Shown: positions 22,907 through 29,391 of the stretch, one piece after another | Numbering within the stretch: the first letter of the stretch is position 1 | Layout: each line of letters begins with the position of its first letter | Source of the DNA: Archangium violaceum | GTDB lineage: Bacteria; Myxococcota; Myxococcia; Myxococcales; Myxococcaceae | Reading direction: 5' to 3' | NCBI RefSeq assembly: GCF_016859125.1 | Contig: NZ_CP069338.1 | Coordinates: 9,551,501 to 9,615,500 of the forward strand | DNA: 64,000 bases | Notes under the pieces: generated by a model | Databases searched by the model: none | What the model saw: the letters and a program-made list of their open reading frames with translations, nothing else | What the model was told of the DNA's origin: nothing | Program-made: the position numbers and the translations under genes

Positions 22907-25900
22907 TTACCGTCCGAACTGGCTGACGAAGAGGGTGACGTCGTTGTCGTCCACGGAGCTGCTCGCATCGAGATCCACGTCCTCGCTGTAGAGCGGGGCG
23001 TCGGAGTCGGTGGCGCCGTAGGCCCGGGCCATCCGGCCCATGTCCTCTCCGTCCACGACATGATCTCCGTTGAGATCGCCGGTGAAGACCTTGATGGTCG
23101 TCGTAGCGCTCGCTCCGGGGGCGACGGTGCTGGTGGCCGTGGCGTGGCAGAAGCCCGTCGCGGTGGGCGCGGTGTAGACGCCATCCGCGGAGAGGGAACC
23201 GCAGATGCGTCCTTCCTTCAGGACCCAGGTGAATGACGTGTCCACCGCATGGGCGACGCTCGCGGTGAGGGTGGCCGAGCCGCCCACCGGCACCACGATG
23301 AAGGGCGACCCGACGCTCACGGAGACGGCCTCGCTCGTGAAGGTGGTCGAGGCCTTGTTGGAGTGGCCGTAGGCGTCGTACGCGACCGCCTCCAGGGTGT
23401 GCTCGCCGGGCGACAGCGGGAGGAGGCTGAAGGGGAGCGTGTAGGGCGGTGCCAGGGCCCGGCCCTTGAACGCGCCATCCACGTAGAACTCCACGGCGGT
23501 GACGCCCGTGTCGTCGGTGGCCTCGGCCTTCAGGACCGTCGTCTCGAACATGCCCTCCAGGCCCACGCTGACAGTGGGGCCGGCCACGTCCTCCACCTTG
23601 GAGTTGAAGATGTCGAAGGCCACCTCCGCGGTGCTCTCGTTGCCCGAGATGTCCACCGCCTTGACCGTCAGGGTGTGGGGACCGTTGGTCAGGTCGGCCG
23701 CGTCGAACGGCTCCGTGTAGCTGCCATGGGGATCCGTGCGCGTGGCCACCGGGTTGCCGTCCACGGAGAACTCCAGGCGCGACGTCCAGACGTTGTCGCT
23801 CACGGCGGCGTGGAGTTGGACCGTCTTCCCGTAGGTGCCACTGACGGACGCGGTGAGCTGGGGCGCCAGCGTGTCCGGCGTGCTCGTGGTGGTCAGCGTC
23901 ACGTCGTCGAGGAACATCTGGGTGACGCCATCCGGGAGCTGCGGCGCCTCCGTCTGGTTGGCCTCGAAGACGAGCTGGATCGTCTGGCCCCTGTAGGCGC
24001 TCAGATCGAAGCGGTGCTCATAGTAGTCGCCGGCGGTGTCATCCAGGTTGGAGAAGGACTGGAGCGTCCTCAGAGCCGTGCCGCTGGAGTCCCGCACCTT
24101 CGCGATGAGGGTGTGGTGCGCCTCCCCATCGGTGAACGCGCTGTTGTGGAGGCGCAGCCAGAAGCTGTAGATGGCCGAGGTGGAGTCCGCTGGGATGGTG
24201 AGGGTCTGGCCCACGGACGACGTGTGGGGGCCCAGGTTCGACCAGAAGAGGAAGAACCTCGCGCCCGTGTGGGCGAACGAGCTGTTCGTGAAGAAGCGGG
24301 ACGAGCCAGTCAGGGTCGTGGTGATCGGCCAGAGCGCCTGACCCGCGGCGGTCGAGTCCTCGAAGCCGGGGTTCAGCACCCGCTGCTGTTGGTTGCGGTC
24401 GAGGAAGAACGCCACCAGGGCCGACTCCCCCACGTTGCCGGCCGCGTCCACGGCTCGGGCCATGACGGTGTGCGCGCCGTTGGACAGCGACGAGGCGTCC
24501 ACCACGTGGGTGAACACGTTGGACGCGGTCCCCACCGACGCACCATCCAGGAAGAACTCGACGGCGTCGACATGGCCGTTGTCCGACACGTTCGCGAAGA
24601 GCCCCACCTTGCCGCCCACCACGACGGCCTGGGCCGTCACGGAAGGTGTCTCGGAGTCGGCGGAGCCGCTCACGCGCAGCGTGAAGTCATCCAGCTTGAA
24701 GCTGGTGCCGAGCGTGGCGTCCTCGTTGCCCTCCAGGTAGATGCGGACGGTCTGGCCCGCGTAGGCGGAGAGGTCGAAGCTGCGCTGCACCCACCCGAGC
24801 GTCGCGTCCAGGTTGGACCAGGTGGCGAGCGTCTCCAGCACCTCTCCCGAGGTGCTGCGCACCTGCACCACCAGGGTGTCCCTGGCGGCGGTGGCCGGCT
24901 CCGCGGTGGTGAGCTCGAGGTAGAAGGTCAGCGAGGCCCGCGCGGCGGAGGCGGGGATGGTGACGTCCTGGTAGAGGTTGTCCACGTGGACGGTGCCGTA
25001 CCCGTTGAGCCAGACGTAACCCTGGCCCGTGTGCGCGCCGGTCACGGGATGGTTGATGTTGCCGCGGGGATCGGCCTCCCATCCCTCGCCAGCCTTCTCG
25101 AAGCCCGGATCCCTCAGGAGCTGATCGAAGCTGTTGGCCACGTTGAAGGAGTAGGGCGCCGACGGGCCCACGTTGCCAGCCAGGTCGTAGGCCTTCACCA
25201 CCAACTGGTGCGTTCCGTTGGAGAGCGTGGTGGTGTCGAGCGGCACCGTGAAGGGCAGCGAGGAATCCGTGCCCACGATGGCCCCGTCGACGAGGAACTC
25301 CACGCGCGTGATGCCCACGTTGTCCGTGCCCAGGGCGTGCAGCTGGAGGCCAGGGGCGGTGCCCGAGACGCTCGCGGTGACGGACGGCGCCATCCGGTCA
25401 TCATAGGTGTTGGCGGTGTAGCCCACGTTGATGGCGGCGAAGGCGTTCTGCACCGCGCGGTACTCGTTGGACGCGGCGCCGAAGAGGTCCGCCGCCGACC
25501 GCAGGGACGCCGTGCGGGCCACCAGGTAGTTGGCTGACGGGAACATGTAGACGGTGATGGCCCGGTACCAGATGGCCGCCGCCTTGTCGTTGCCGATCCC
25601 CTCCATGCCCTCGGGCAGGTACTCGCTGGAGGTCTCGAGCCCGAAGCTCGCCTTGTCCGCGCCCTGGGACAGGAAGTAGAAGGCGCGGTTCATCGGGCCG
25701 CTGCTGAAGTGGACGTCGATGTTCTCGATGCCGGGGTACCAGGCATCCACGCTCACGCCGTCCAGACTCGGCTTGTGCATGTAGCGCATCGGAGCGTACG
25801 GGTTCAGGCTCTCGCCGATGAACCAGTTGCCCTTGGTGCCATCTCCGATGGTGGAGCCCTGGCCGTTGCGCACCCAGAACTCCGTCATGGTGCCGAAGAT

Positions 25901-27166
25901 GTCGGAGTTGGCCTCGTTCAGGCCGCCGGACTCGCCGGAGTAGATGAGCGCGGCCGTCTGCGACATGACGCCGTGGCTCAGCTCGTGGGCCGACACGTCG
26001 AGCGCGGCGAGCGACTTGGAGCCCGTGGGGTCGCCCGGGTAGGAGCCGTCGCCGTAGCTCATGCAGAAGCACGAGCTGTTCCAGAAGGCGTTGTTGTAGA
26101 GGTTGCTGACGTGCACCCGGTTGAAGGTGGGGGTGCCGGCGTTGTCGATGCCCAGGCGGCCGTGGATCTTCAGGTAGTAGTCCCACGTGGCCTGCAGGCC
26201 GTAGTGCGCATCCACGGCGGCCGTCTGGCCGTTGTCGCCGAGCGTGGGCTGTCCGGGGACGTAGTTCGCCCCGTCACCCCAGGTGTTGTCGGGGTCCGTG
26301 TACAGGGTGAGCGTGGCCTCGGCGCCGTTCTGCAGATCGGCGTGGTTCACGTCATAGGTCCGCAGGCCCTCGCCGAGCGCGCGGGTCGTGTCGCGCAGCT
26401 CGTAGAGGCCCTCGGCGTTCTTCCAGACGTTGAGCTGCACGCTCCCGTTGTGCTGGGAGTTGCCCTTTCCAATGGCCGCCGAGGTCTGCAGCGAGCTCCA
26501 CTTCTTCAGCACCTCGCCGGAACGCGCGTCGAGAAGGAGGTCCGTGTGGGCGATGCCATCCTGGGGGTTGTCCAGCTCGACGTGGACGTGCCAGGCGAGC
26601 CGGTAGCCCACCACCTCCTGCCTGAAGTCCGCCGCGTTCAGCTGCTTGAAGGACTTGTGCGGCGCGAGGTTCACCCGGCGCGTCTCCGGGTAGATGACGA
26701 GCTCGGCGCTCGGCTCGGCACCCATCAGGCCGCGCGGGGAGATCTCCAGGGTCGCCAGGGAGATGGCGCTGGCCGCGTCCACCGTGGGCTGGGTGGACAT
26801 GCGGATGCCCGTGCGCAGCCCGTCCGCCGTCACCGGCAGGCTCCGTCCGCTTGGATCCAGGTGGGTGATGGCCATGGCCCCCCAGACCGGCACGCCCTGG
26901 TGGAGTTGCTGGAAGTGGGAGTGCGTGAGGCCGAAGCGGTCCGTATGGGCGCCGGACATCCGGAAGTCATCCCCGTCGTTCAGCCCGAGGCGGGTCTTCT
27001 GCGCTCGCAGCGTCGAAAGGGATTCGGCCACGCGTGACGGCTCCCTTGCACGGAGCTGTGTGAACGCGGATTGGGAGAGCGGGGTGATTCTTTCACCCGC
27101 GAGGGAGGGACCCGCCGTCAAGAACGTGGCGAGGAGCAGAGGCCAGCGAGGCCACGGCATGGACAT
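22907..27166 (-). CDS. M4 (thermolysin-family) metalloprotease with Ig and jelly-roll domains and C-terminal dockerin
   Basis: 1419 aa. ATG 27166 was chosen for its GGAG site and signal peptide (WPLLLATFLTAGPSLAG). A propeptide (FTP/PepSY type, to about residue 200) precedes the zinc protease: HELSH at residues 394-398, with the third ligand in GGLNEANSDIFG. Then follow alternating Ig-like Big domains (VEFLVDGAIVGTDSS, repeated) and two carbohydrate-binding-like jelly rolls (LLRDPGFEKAGEGW, RVLNPGFEDSTAAG), and a Big2 domain. The end has two dockerin loops, GDLNGDHVVDGEDMGRMARA and DVDLDASSSVDDNDV. A secreted peptidase for extracellular protein digestion, co-transcribed with the cohesin-like lipoprotein. 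Confidence 0.9.
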   Translation of the reverse strand: MSMPWPRWPLLLATFLTAGPSLAGERITPLSQSAFTQLRAREPSRVAESLSTLRAQKTRLGLNDGDDFRMSGAHTDRFGLTHSHFQQLHQGVPVWGAMAITHLDPSGRSLPVTADGLRTGIRMSTQPTVDAASAISLATLEISPRGLMGAEPSAELVIYPETRRVNLAPHKSFKQLNAADFRQEVVGYRLAWHVHVELDNPQDGIAHTDLLLDARSGEVLKKWSSLQTSAAIGKGNSQHNGSVQLNVWKNAEGLYELRDTTRALGEGLRTYDVNHADLQNGAEATLTLYTDPDNTWGDGANYVPGQPTLGDNGQTAAVDAHYGLQATWDYYLKIHGRLGIDNAGTPTFNRVHVSNLYNNAFWNSSCFCMSYGDGSYPGDPTGSKSLAALDVSAHELSHGVMSQTAALIYSGESGGLNEANSDIFGTMTEFWVRNGQGSTIGDGTKGNWFIGESLNPYAPMRYMHKPSLDGVSVDAWYPGIENIDVHFSSGPMNRAFYFLSQGADKASFGLETSSEYLPEGMEGIGNDKAAAIWYRAITVYMFPSANYLVARTASLRSAADLFGAASNEYRAVQNAFAAINVGYTANTYDDRMAPSVTASVSGTAPGLQLHALGTDNVGITRVEFLVDGAIVGTDSSLPFTVPLDTTTLSNGTHQLVVKAYDLAGNVGPSAPYSFNVANSFDQLLRDPGFEKAGEGWEADPRGNINHPVTGAHTGQGYVWLNGYGTVHVDNLYQDVTIPASAARASLTFYLELTTAEPATAARDTLVVQVRSTSGEVLETLATWSNLDATLGWVQRSFDLSAYAGQTVRIYLEGNEDATLGTSFKLDDFTLRVSGSADSETPSVTAQAVVVGGKVGLFANVSDNGHVDAVEFFLDGASVGTASNVFTHVVDASSLSNGAHTVMARAVDAAGNVGESALVAFFLDRNQQQRVLNPGFEDSTAAGQALWPITTTLTGSSRFFTNSSFAHTGARFFLFWSNLGPHTSSVGQTLTIPADSTSAIYSFWLRLHNSAFTDGEAHHTLIAKVRDSSGTALRTLQSFSNLDDTAGDYYEHRFDLSAYRGQTIQLVFEANQTEAPQLPDGVTQMFLDDVTLTTTSTPDTLAPQLTASVSGTYGKTVQLHAAVSDNVWTSRLEFSVDGNPVATRTDPHGSYTEPFDAADLTNGPHTLTVKAVDISGNESTAEVAFDIFNSKVEDVAGPTVSVGLEGMFETTVLKAEATDDTGVTAVEFYVDGAFKGRALAPPYTLPFSLLPLSPGEHTLEAVAYDAYGHSNKASTTFTSEAVSVSVGSPFIVVPVGGSATLTASVAHAVDTSFTWVLKEGRICGSLSADGVYTAPTATGFCHATATSTVAPGASATTTIKVFTGDLNGDHVVDGEDMGRMARAYGATDSDAPLYSEDVDLDASSSVDDNDVTLFVSQFGR

Positions 27167-27452
27167 GGATTGACTCCACCGGACTTCATCGAGGAGGTGA
27201 CCGGCCGTCCGGCACCCACATCGAGCACCAGCGCCGGGAGCGGCACTACGACTCCGCTGATGCTCGAAAAGTCCGACCGCGTACTGCCAGGGCGCCTGCC
27301 CCTCGACTTTCGCCTTCAGCGCAGCGGCGGGAGTATACACAAGTGGACCTTCGGGCTGAATAAGTCCAGACCCGGTGAACAGCGGATCGGCCACTCAAAC
27401 AGGTAAAACATGAAATTCCTGAAATCCCTTTGCATGTCATCCTTCGTTGATG

Positions 27453-27597: not shown

Positions 27598-28698
27598 GTG
27601 AGCAAGAGCGTTCGCGGTTTCAAGTGGCTGGTGGGAGGAATCGTCGGTGTGTCCATGCTGGGCGCGTGTGGCGCTCCGGCCGAGGGCGAGACTGCCTCCG
27701 AGCAGGTCGACGCGCAGGCTACGGGCGAGGTGGCGGTGAGCCTGTCCGTGGCCAAGGCCTCCCTCAGCGCCCGCGAGGACGTGGCGGTGACGGTCACCCT
27801 CACCAACATCTCCTCGGAGCCGGTGCAACTGCTCAAGTTCTACATCCCGGATGGGCGCCTCAAGGAGGGCCTCTTCGAGGTGACGCGCAATGGCGAGCCC
27901 GTGGAGTACATCGGTCCGCACATCAAACGCGCGGCGCCGCGCCCCGAGGACTACATCACCCTGCAGCCCGGCGAGAGCCTGTCGGGCTCGGCGCCCGTCT
28001 CCGGCATGTATGATCTGTCCGAGACCGGCAGCTATACCGTCCGCTACGCGGCGCGCTCGCTGGAGCAGCACAGCGCGGTGCTCACCAAGGCGGCGCAGCT
28101 CGACTCGAACCTCGTGAACCTGTGGATCGAGGGCCGTGACAGCGGCCTGTCCGAGCTCCAGGCGCAGGGCACCGTGTCCGCCCAGGGCCTGTCGTACTCC
28201 GGCGCCTGCACCAGCTCCGAGCAGTCGTCGATCAGCTCGGCGCTGACGTACGCGAGGACCTACGCGAACAACGCGTCGACCTACCTCAACGGCATCTCCG
28301 CCAGCACCACGCGCTACAAGACATGGTTCGGCACCTTCTCGAGCACCAACCTGACCACGGCGCGCAACCACTTCACCAACATCAAGAACGCCCTGGCCAA
28401 CGCGGCGATCGTGGTCGACTGCAGCTGCAACGACAGCTACTACGCCTACGTGTACCCGACCCAGCCGTACAAGATCTACGTGTGCAACGCCTTCTGGAGC
28501 GCCCCCACGACGGGCACGGACTCCAAGGCGGGCACGCTGGTCCACGAGATGAGCCACTTCAACGTGGTGGCGGGCACGGATGACCACGCCTACGGGCAGA
28601 CCGCGGCCAAGAGCCTGGCGACCTCCAGCCCCACCCGGGCGCTGGACAACGCGGACAACCATGAATACTTCGCGGAGAACACGCCCTCCCTGCCGTGA
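27598..28698 (+). CDS. M35-like (aspzincin, deuterolysin/peptidyl-Lys) metalloendopeptidase lipoprotein
   Basis: 366 aa, GTG start at 27598 preceded by AAAGGAAG. The lipobox is LGAC (Cys24). Residues about 45-165 are a beta-sandwich prodomain (SLSVAKASLSAREDVAVTVT, FEVTRNGEPVEYIGPHIKR). The catalytic domain has HEMSH (His316-His320) and the downstream GTDDHAYG, the GTxDxxYG motif that supplies the third zinc ligand, Asp, in aspzincins. Members from fungi and bacteria cut at Lys or act on basic proteins. The next gene repeats the prodomain alone. Confidence 0.88.
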   Translation: MSKSVRGFKWLVGGIVGVSMLGACGAPAEGETASEQVDAQATGEVAVSLSVAKASLSAREDVAVTVTLTNISSEPVQLLKFYIPDGRLKEGLFEVTRNGEPVEYIGPHIKRAAPRPEDYITLQPGESLSGSAPVSGMYDLSETGSYTVRYAARSLEQHSAVLTKAAQLDSNLVNLWIEGRDSGLSELQAQGTVSAQGLSYSGACTSSEQSSISSALTYARTYANNASTYLNGISASTTRYKTWFGTFSSTNLTTARNHFTNIKNALANAAIVVDCSCNDSYYAYVYPTQPYKIYVCNAFWSAPTTGTDSKAGTLVHEMSHFNVVAGTDDHAYGQTAAKSLATSSPTRALDNADNHEYFAENTPSLP

Positions 28699-28725
28699 TC
28701 TCGGTTAGGGTAGGGATTTGATGGG

Positions 28726-28759
28726 AAACGGGAGCGGCGACGCTCCCGTTTTTCTTTTC
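28726..28759 (+). terminator. Rho-independent terminator after the M35-like gene
   Basis: AAACGGGAGCG (28726-28736) and CGCTCCCGTTT (28741-28751) form a perfect stem with a GCGA tetraloop, followed by TTCTTTTCT. This is the clearest intrinsic terminator in the window. It separates the protease gene from the free-standing prodomain gene, which needs its own promoter or read-through. Confidence 0.88.
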
Positions 28760-28809
28760 TGGCGCGTGAGCCCATCCCAGACGCGCCTGGAGCGGAGAGC
28801 ATCCGTCCT

Positions 28810-29391
28810 ATGATTCGTGGACACGTTGGTTGGGTCGCGCTGTGCTGTCTGGCATTCGGTGGTAGCGCATGTACGCGCAAGGACATCCCGGCGCAGCCGG
28901 AGCCGGCGCAGCAACAGGAGGCCCCACCTCAGAAGGAGAACCCGGCCATGGCATCGCCCCTGGAGTGCTCGTTGAGCGTGCCTCCGAGTGTGCGTGCGGG
29001 TGAGCCCGTGGAGGTTCGTTTCCAGCTCACCAACCGCACGGCGCGGCCCCTGTTCGTGCTCAAATGGCGTACGCCGCTCGAGGGCCTGCGCGGCAATGAC
29101 TTCCAGGTGACCCGCGACGGCACCGACATTCCCTACCAGGGGCCGATGGTGAAGCGGGGCAACCCGTCGGCGGAGAGCTACGTGGCGATCGCGCCCGGTG
29201 CGTCGGTGGAGGCCCGGGTGGAGCTGACCCTGGCCTACGAGATGAACCAGCCGGGGCACTATCGCATCGAGTTCCGCAACCAGCTCATGGATGTCGCCGA
29301 CCAGCAGTCGGACGTGCCCCGGAGCCTGGATCAGCTCCAGTCCATGCCGGTGCAGTGCCCGGTGATCGAGACGACGATCACCGCGCCCTAG
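28810..29391 (+). CDS. Free-standing prodomain-like lipoprotein (possible protease inhibitor or chaperone)
   Basis: 193 aa, lipobox-type signal (GGSAC) and a P/Q/E linker. Residues about 52-165 match the prodomain of the preceding M35-like protease: FQVTRDGTDIPYQGPMVKR against FEVTRNGEPVEYIGPHIKR, SYVAIAPGASVEARVELTLA against DYITLQPGESLSGSAPVSGM, and both run into GHYRIEFR or GSYTVRYA. There is no catalytic domain. Since prodomains hold zymogens inactive or assist folding, this lipoprotein may inhibit or assist the protease in trans; that is inference. Its 3' end overlaps the next gene, which is convergent, by 14 bp. Confidence 0.75.
   Translation: MIRGHVGWVALCCLAFGGSACTRKDIPAQPEPAQQQEAPPQKENPAMASPLECSLSVPPSVRAGEPVEVRFQLTNRTARPLFVLKWRTPLEGLRGNDFQVTRDGTDIPYQGPMVKRGNPSAESYVAIAPGASVEARVELTLAYEMNQPGHYRIEFRNQLMDVADQQSDVPRSLDQLQSMPVQCPVIETTITAP

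What the first reader, a model, noticed from the sequence alone, without database searches (positions are those of the whole stretch)
27598..29391. M35-like protease followed by a free copy of its prodomain
The 193-aa lipoprotein at 28810 matches the N-terminal prodomain of the adjacent protease over more than 100 residues (FQVTRDGTDIPYQGPMVKR versus FEVTRNGEPVEYIGPHIKR) and lacks any catalytic part. Both are lipoproteins, so both face the same compartment. A prodomain duplicated as a separate protein could be an inhibitor protecting the producer.
Basis: partly seen in the sequence, partly recalled or inferred. Interest (0 to 1): 0.6.

Follow-up and report, generated by a model that had tools for sequence, protein, structure and literature searches.

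The report
Stand-alone protease prodomain, likely inhibitor
Next to a secreted lysine-specific protease gene, this soil predator bacterium carries a separate membrane-anchored copy of the protease's own 'off switch', a pairing that recurs across several bacterial phyla and probably protects the cell from its own or its neighbours' protease.

Summary
Confirmed. The 193-aa lipoprotein gene (28810-29391) encodes only the prodomain of the upstream M35 (aspzincin) protease (27598-28698): 32% identity over 152 aa, far above 1000 shuffles. Its AF2 model matches the propeptide part alone of the solved AsaP1 zymogen (Z 14.1). The aligned Lys of the propeptide's substrate-like loop is kept in 96 of 96 stand-alone prodomains aligned, 9 of 10 from M35-less Myxococcus, and 114 of 115 prodomains inside M35 enzymes.

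The pair is not local. Of 63 Myxococcaceae genomes with the small gene, 48 have it next to M35, 6 are split at contig ends and 9 have no M35. It recurs tandem in colwellia relatives and convergent in Massilia relatives, and in single Deltaproteobacteria and Aminicenantes MAGs. Stand-alone and attached forms look anciently separate, so it is probably not a copy of its neighbour, though that test is marginal (p-AU 0.055).

Best explanation: a surface-anchored propeptide-like inhibitor of mature M35, giving self- or kin-protection; not shown biochemically. Pfam and NCBIfam gave no match over their cut-offs.

The parts
27598..28698 (+). M35 (aspzincin) metallopeptidase pre-proenzyme, GTG start, 366 aa, lipobox LGAC
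   Evidence: PF14521 1e-45; AsaP1 zymogen 7.8e-92 over residues 58-364
27670..28152 (+). M35 prodomain (about residues 25-185)
   Evidence: boundary from the catalytic-domain match used
27913..27930 (+). Substrate-like loop of the attached prodomain, GPHIKR; Lys110 aligned with AsaP1 Lys85
28153..28695 (+). M35 catalytic domain with HEMSHFNVVAGTDD (residue 316) and ADNHEY (residue 352)
28723..28754 (+). Intrinsic-terminator-like hairpin between the two genes; a similar one by a strict search in 29 of 51 pair loci
28810..29391 (+). Stand-alone M35 prodomain, 193-aa predicted lipoprotein
28870..28872 (+). Lipobox Cys21 codon of the stand-alone prodomain
   Evidence: invariant in 16 orthologues
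29140..29166 (+). Inhibitory-type loop GPMVKRGNP (residues 111-119); Lys115-Arg116 at 29152-29157
   Evidence: loop without secondary structure at residues 108-120 in the lone model, strand at 113-115 in the fused model
28966..29358 (+). Span between the Cys53 and Cys183 codons, a possible disulfide closing the domain; Cys53 column: Cys in 1 of 115 attached prodomains

Best explanation
The small gene encodes a stand-alone propeptide-like inhibitor of the M35 lysine-specific metallopeptidase. Both proteins are exported and lipid-anchored (inferred from lipoboxes). The enzyme is held inactive by its own prodomain; once that is cleaved, the mature enzyme is released from its anchor, while the stand-alone prodomain stays on the cell. 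There it binds the mature enzyme as the attached prodomain does, with Val114-Lys115 in the S1-S1' subsites, so producer and kin envelopes are spared while targets outside are digested. Shown here: homology, fold, conserved Lys-Arg loop, linkage, loss of M35 with retention of the small gene at the same locus. Inferred: binding, inhibition, compartment, protective role.
For: Match to the inhibitory propeptide part only of AsaP1 in sequence and predicted fold, Z 14.1 to 2x3b residues 23-154. Lys invariant: 96 of 96 FREE, 9 of 10 SOLO, 114 of 115 attached; Arg 96 of 96, 10 of 10, 91 of 115, even in Massilia-family copies whose core has diverged. The aligned AsaP1 residues fall at Ile84-Lys85 by counting along the alignment; that these fill S1-S1' is recalled from Bogdanovic 2016 (reference seen, paper not held). 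M35 enzymes cut before Lys (review passages), and the motif ADNHEY is kept. Linkage: 48 of 63 Myxococcaceae genomes, 38 of 45 Massilia-family copies within 3 kb, 37 of them convergent, 18 of 26 alteromonad-family copies directly downstream. In an AF2 model of catalytic domain plus stand-alone prodomain read through as one chain, residues M-V-K become a strand that the lone model lacks, and pTM 0.57 exceeds the roughly 0.43 that I reckon for unplaced domains.
Against: No binding or inhibition data. pTM 0.57 is modest, the chain is artificial, only one of five models reached pLDDT 74 (others 67-70), and no coordinates were read, so the strand's partner is unknown. 9 Myxococcaceae, 5 alteromonad-family and 2 Massilia-family genomes have the small gene without M35. 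Two relatives in larger proteins have Ser-Arg, one lone relative Arg-Arg, in place of Lys-Arg, and a tandem copy in G107 has Asp for Lys. A terminator-like hairpin separates the genes, so they are not a simple operon.
Confidence: 0.66

Rival explanations
1. Folding helper in trans: the stand-alone prodomain assists folding or export of M35, as propeptides often act as intramolecular chaperones, with inhibition secondary.
For: Propeptide homology and linkage.
Against: Every M35 analysed here that has a small partner already carries its own prodomain; small genes persist where M35 is absent.
Confidence: 0.13
2. Unrelated use of the Ig-like fold: the domain now does something else at the cell surface and linkage is historical.
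For: 12 other Myxococcota genomes without M35 over the cut-off hold weaker relatives, some in larger proteins with DUF6795; solo lineages; generic Ig-like folds fill the rest of the fold list.
Against: Lys-Arg conserved where the core is not; adjacency kept in opposite layouts in separate families.
Confidence: 0.14
3. Regulator of activation: it keeps M35 silent inside the producer's envelope until release and serves timing rather than immunity.
For: Same inferred compartment; own transcription unit possible because of the terminator-like hairpin.
Against: Does not explain retention after loss of M35.
Confidence: 0.2
4. Decaying fragment of a second M35 gene.
For: Only the prodomain half is present.
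Against: Intact in 63 genomes with its own signal and conserved motif; pairwise dN/dS below 1 in the solo set (median 0.34, 45 pairs); stand-alone forms group apart from attached ones.
Confidence: 0.01

Closest known systems
AsaP1 propeptide (M35 of Aeromonas salmonicida, PDB 2x3a/2x3b/2x3c)
   Same: Same fold (Z 13.8-14.1), same loop with Lys-Arg
   Different: There it is part of the zymogen; here a separate gene and predicted lipoprotein with an extra Cys pair
Stand-alone subtilisin propeptide-like inhibitors (MEROPS I9; SUB1-ProM of Plasmodium, PMC6993865, abstract and passages read)
   Same: Stand-alone propeptide homologue encoded next to protease genes, acting as inhibitor
   Different: Serine proteases, another fold; inhibition measured there, not here
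Cathepsin propeptide-like inhibitors (I29: CTLA-2alpha, crammer; PMC4089206 and PMC3551606, search listing only)
   Same: Free propeptide-like inhibitors
   Different: Cysteine proteases, helical propeptide (recalled), eukaryotic
Protealysin-emfourin operon (PMC9505478, passages read)
   Same: Bacterial metalloprotease gene with adjacent inhibitor gene, proposed by its authors as effector and immunity pair
   Different: M4 protease; same operon; emfourin not described as a propeptide homologue in the passages read
Bacillus intracellular proteinase inhibitor IPI/BsuPI (PDB 3isy)
   Same: Best non-M35 structural match, Z 8.9, 113 residues, rmsd 3.1
   Different: 12% identity; Z barely above the background of about 8, so a lead only

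Membership tests
M35 / PF14521 (upstream gene) | Match over the curated cut-off | tested here: met
   156.1 bits against 30
M35 / PF14521 (upstream gene) | HExxH with downstream GTxD Zn ligand | tested here: met
   HEMSHFNVVAGTDD at residue 316
M35 / PF14521 (upstream gene) | Cleavage on the N-terminal side of Lys | not testable with these tools
   Only the motif ADNHEY seen
M35 propeptide (small gene) | Sequence homology to M35 propeptides | tested here: met
M35 propeptide (small gene) | Propeptide fold | tested here: met
   Z 14.1, 122 residues, rmsd 2.4
M35 propeptide (small gene) | Joined to a catalytic domain in the same chain | tested here: not met
   no PF14521 in the small protein; hence 'stand-alone relative', not a propeptide proper
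Propeptide-like protease inhibitors (as I9, I29) | Stand-alone propeptide homologue | tested here: met
Propeptide-like protease inhibitors (as I9, I29) | Measured inhibition of the cognate protease | not testable with these tools
   needs protein
Bacterial lipoproteins (small gene) | Signal with lipobox Cys | tested here: inconclusive
   GSAC weak by itself; Cys21 invariant in 16; no signal predictor run
BsuPI / IPI (3isy) | Homology | tested here: inconclusive
   Z 8.9 only; no Pfam match

The most novel reading that the evidence does not exclude
A broad, unnamed immunity family against diffusible lysine-specific M35 proteases: producers keep it beside the enzyme, while non-producers such as Myxococcus xanthus and some colwellias keep it alone as orphan immunity against neighbours' enzyme, a public-goods and competition arms race centred on a substrate-like Lys-Arg loop.
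Probability: 0.3. Interest if true: 0.76.

Novelty: new variant of a known kind. Interest (0 to 1): 0.62.

Why it matters
Stand-alone propeptide inhibitors are known for serine (I9) and cysteine (I29) proteases; the searches here found none described for M35 metallopeptidases, and no Pfam or NCBIfam family covers these proteins. If right, it names a family in several phyla, explains how predatory and degradative bacteria survive a diffusible protease, gives a handle on M. xanthus, a model organism that lacks M35 over the Pfam cut-off yet keeps the gene, and supplies ready inhibitors for Lys-N proteomics enzymes.

Tried and rejected
Recent local duplication: disfavoured, not excluded (Myxococcaceae FREE+PRO as one clade costs 44.9 log-likelihood units, p-AU 0.055). 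For the Massilia family the same test does not decide (p 0.59), so a separate origin there is open. In the wider tree the Delta and Aminicenantes attached prodomains sit with their stand-alone partners (support 83), against a single clean split. One operon: rejected for many loci, a terminator-like hairpin in 29 of 51 loci. A checkpoint note of mine gives 31; recounting that output gives 29. dN/dS: NG86 on GC-rich genes is crude; only 'below 1 in the solo set' is used; paired copies had median 0.64, some above 1. M35 remnants at solo loci: M35 queries hit the prodomain gene itself plus a few weak hits (E 0.09-0.95) elsewhere; none was a catalytic domain. Weak PF14521 hit in G103 (19.4 bits, cut-off 30) not counted as M35. 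Pfam scan of 13 stand-alone members gave nothing below E 0.01. Literature: searches found no paper on an M35-linked free propeptide in the held open-access library; subscription journals are mostly absent. Structural rows below the first four lie near background.

Rows dropped before counting: L197 (2 rows), L195, L115, being truncated or contig-cut M35 genes. Tree rows with under 95 filled columns or near-duplicates left out (93 of 221 kept); L104, L142, L212 also left out.

Full report
What is there. The first has PF14521 (156 bits), HEMSHFNVVAGTDD and aligns end to end with the AsaP1 zymogen (E 7.8e-92). The second aligns with the first's N-terminal half only: 32% over 152 aa, E 2e-18; score 172 against the prodomain, 24 against the catalytic half, 64 at most in 1000 shuffles. 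Against the PDB it finds the propeptide part of AsaP1 (E 4.6e-10); the other rows there were weak.

Structure. AF2 gives residues 50-193 with pLDDT mostly above 90; residues 1-46 are largely unordered. VIA-align places the domain on AsaP1 residues 23-154, that is the propeptide, Z 13.8-14.1; the next match is the B. subtilis intracellular proteinase inhibitor (3isy, Z 8.9), then a crowd of Ig-like domains at 8 and below. The motif GPMVKRGNP lies in a loop at residues 108-120 with no secondary structure in the lone model. By counting along the printed alignment, Val114-Lys115 falls on AsaP1 Ile84-Lys85. That these two residues fill S1 and S1' in the AsaP1 zymogen is my recollection of Bogdanovic et al. 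2016; the paper is not held and only its reference was seen. M35 enzymes of this kind cut before Lys (PMC11985622, passages).

Conservation. In 221 aligned prodomains the Lys is present in 96 of 96 stand-alone copies from M35-bearing or mixed lineages, 9 of 10 from the M35-less Myxococcus set, and 114 of 115 attached prodomains; the next Arg in 96 of 96, 10 of 10 and 91 of 115. Two positions before the Lys, stand-alone copies mostly have Met (81 of 96), attached ones His (97 of 115). A Cys (Cys53) is present in 67 of 96 and 10 of 10 stand-alone copies but 1 of 115 attached ones. The one solo copy without Lys is the second of a tandem pair in G107 (Asp).

Distribution. Of 145 genomes of the order, 63 have the small gene at high score (loci tallied): 48 have M35 directly upstream on the same strand, 6 have the two genes on different contigs in draft assemblies, and 9 (G100, G103, G106, G107, G115-G119) have no PF14521 over the cut-off. 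Their flanks match the pair locus of G113 on both sides at about 75-87% DNA identity, with the M35 segment missing (gene order). In 245 genomes of the Massilia family, 56 have M35 and 44 have stand-alone copies (45 copies), 42 of these 44 with M35; 38 of 45 copies lie within 3 kb of an M35, 37 convergent and 1 divergent; 14 genomes have M35 and no stand-alone copy. In 246 genomes of the alteromonad family, 26 have one copy each: 18 directly downstream of M35, 3 with M35 on another contig, 5 without M35; 3 more have M35 only. M35 was sought there only in the genomes with hits, so the background rate is unknown. Single pairs occur in a Deltaproteobacteria MAG and an Aminicenantes MAG (L139, L140). 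Weaker relatives sit in 12 further Myxococcota genomes that lack M35 over the cut-off, six of those aligned with Lys-Arg, one with Arg-Arg, two with Ser-Arg inside larger proteins, three without the motif.

Origin. On 93 rows by 134 columns, 45 attached prodomains from myxobacteria, Massilia and alteromonad relatives form one clade (99) and the stand-alone copies fall outside; the Delta and Aminicenantes attached prodomains sit with their stand-alone partners (support 83). With three long rows removed all stand-alone copies are on one side (support 69), and a forced local origin in Myxococcaceae costs 44.9 log units (p-AU 0.055). For Massilia relatives a local origin is not rejected (p 0.59). 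So the copy in this window is probably old, but the number of origins is open.

Docking model. The two genes are in the same frame here and in 14 relatives used; reading stops as residues gives a chain of catalytic domain, spacer and stand-alone prodomain. The model has pLDDT 74.4 and pTM 0.57, and shows a strand at residues 332-334, which are Met113-Val114-Lys115. The lone model has no strand there. With 168 and 143 ordered residues of 412, unplaced domains should give pTM near 0.43 by my own estimate, so some relative placement is implied. No coordinates were read and no control was run: this is supportive, not proof.

Mechanism. The parsimonious reading is a stand-alone propeptide-like inhibitor anchored in the envelope: mature M35, freed from its lipid-anchored prodomain, is captured at the producer's surface. 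A terminator-like hairpin between the genes (29 of 51 loci) suggests separate expression, useful for protection independent of protease production. Retention at the same locus where M35 is missing, with pairwise dN/dS below 1 (45 pairs, median 0.34, crude), fits orphan immunity. Chaperone, activation timing and unrelated use remain possible.

Known or new. Stand-alone propeptide-like inhibitors are established for subtilisins (PMC6993865, abstract and passages) and cathepsins (listing); gingipain propeptides inhibit their enzymes (PMC3677877, abstract); a bacterial metalloprotease with an adjacent inhibitor gene is known as protealysin-emfourin (PMC9505478, passages). The ten paper searches (listed under Tried and rejected) showed none for M35. 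Hence a new variant of a known kind.

Noticed in passing
22907-27394 (-): M4 thermolysin-like metallopeptidase with FTP motif, Big_7 repeats and a C-terminus that looks dockerin-like by eye; it lies next to the M35 gene, not seen beside it in relative L078.
   Followed up: partly
L068 7647-8977 (G107): Two tandem stand-alone prodomains without M35; the second has Asp for the conserved Lys.
   Followed up: partly
L218, L219: Prodomain-like domain at the C-terminus of larger proteins with DUF6795, with Ser-Arg in place of Lys-Arg.
   Followed up: partly
L131: Record titled Comamonas sp. KCTC 72670 carries a Myxococcus-type locus; the title looks wrong.
   Followed up: no
G057, G059, G063, G064, G067, G071: Draft assemblies break between M35 and the small gene in six genomes, perhaps because of the hairpin.
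   Followed up: no
L139 1873-3135, L140 2095-3315: M35 enzymes with a C-terminal hydrophobic and basic tail, so membrane-anchored at the other end.
   Followed up: no
window:28810-29388 model: Structural likeness of the M35 propeptide fold to B. subtilis proteinase inhibitor IPI (3isy, Z 8.9).
   Followed up: no
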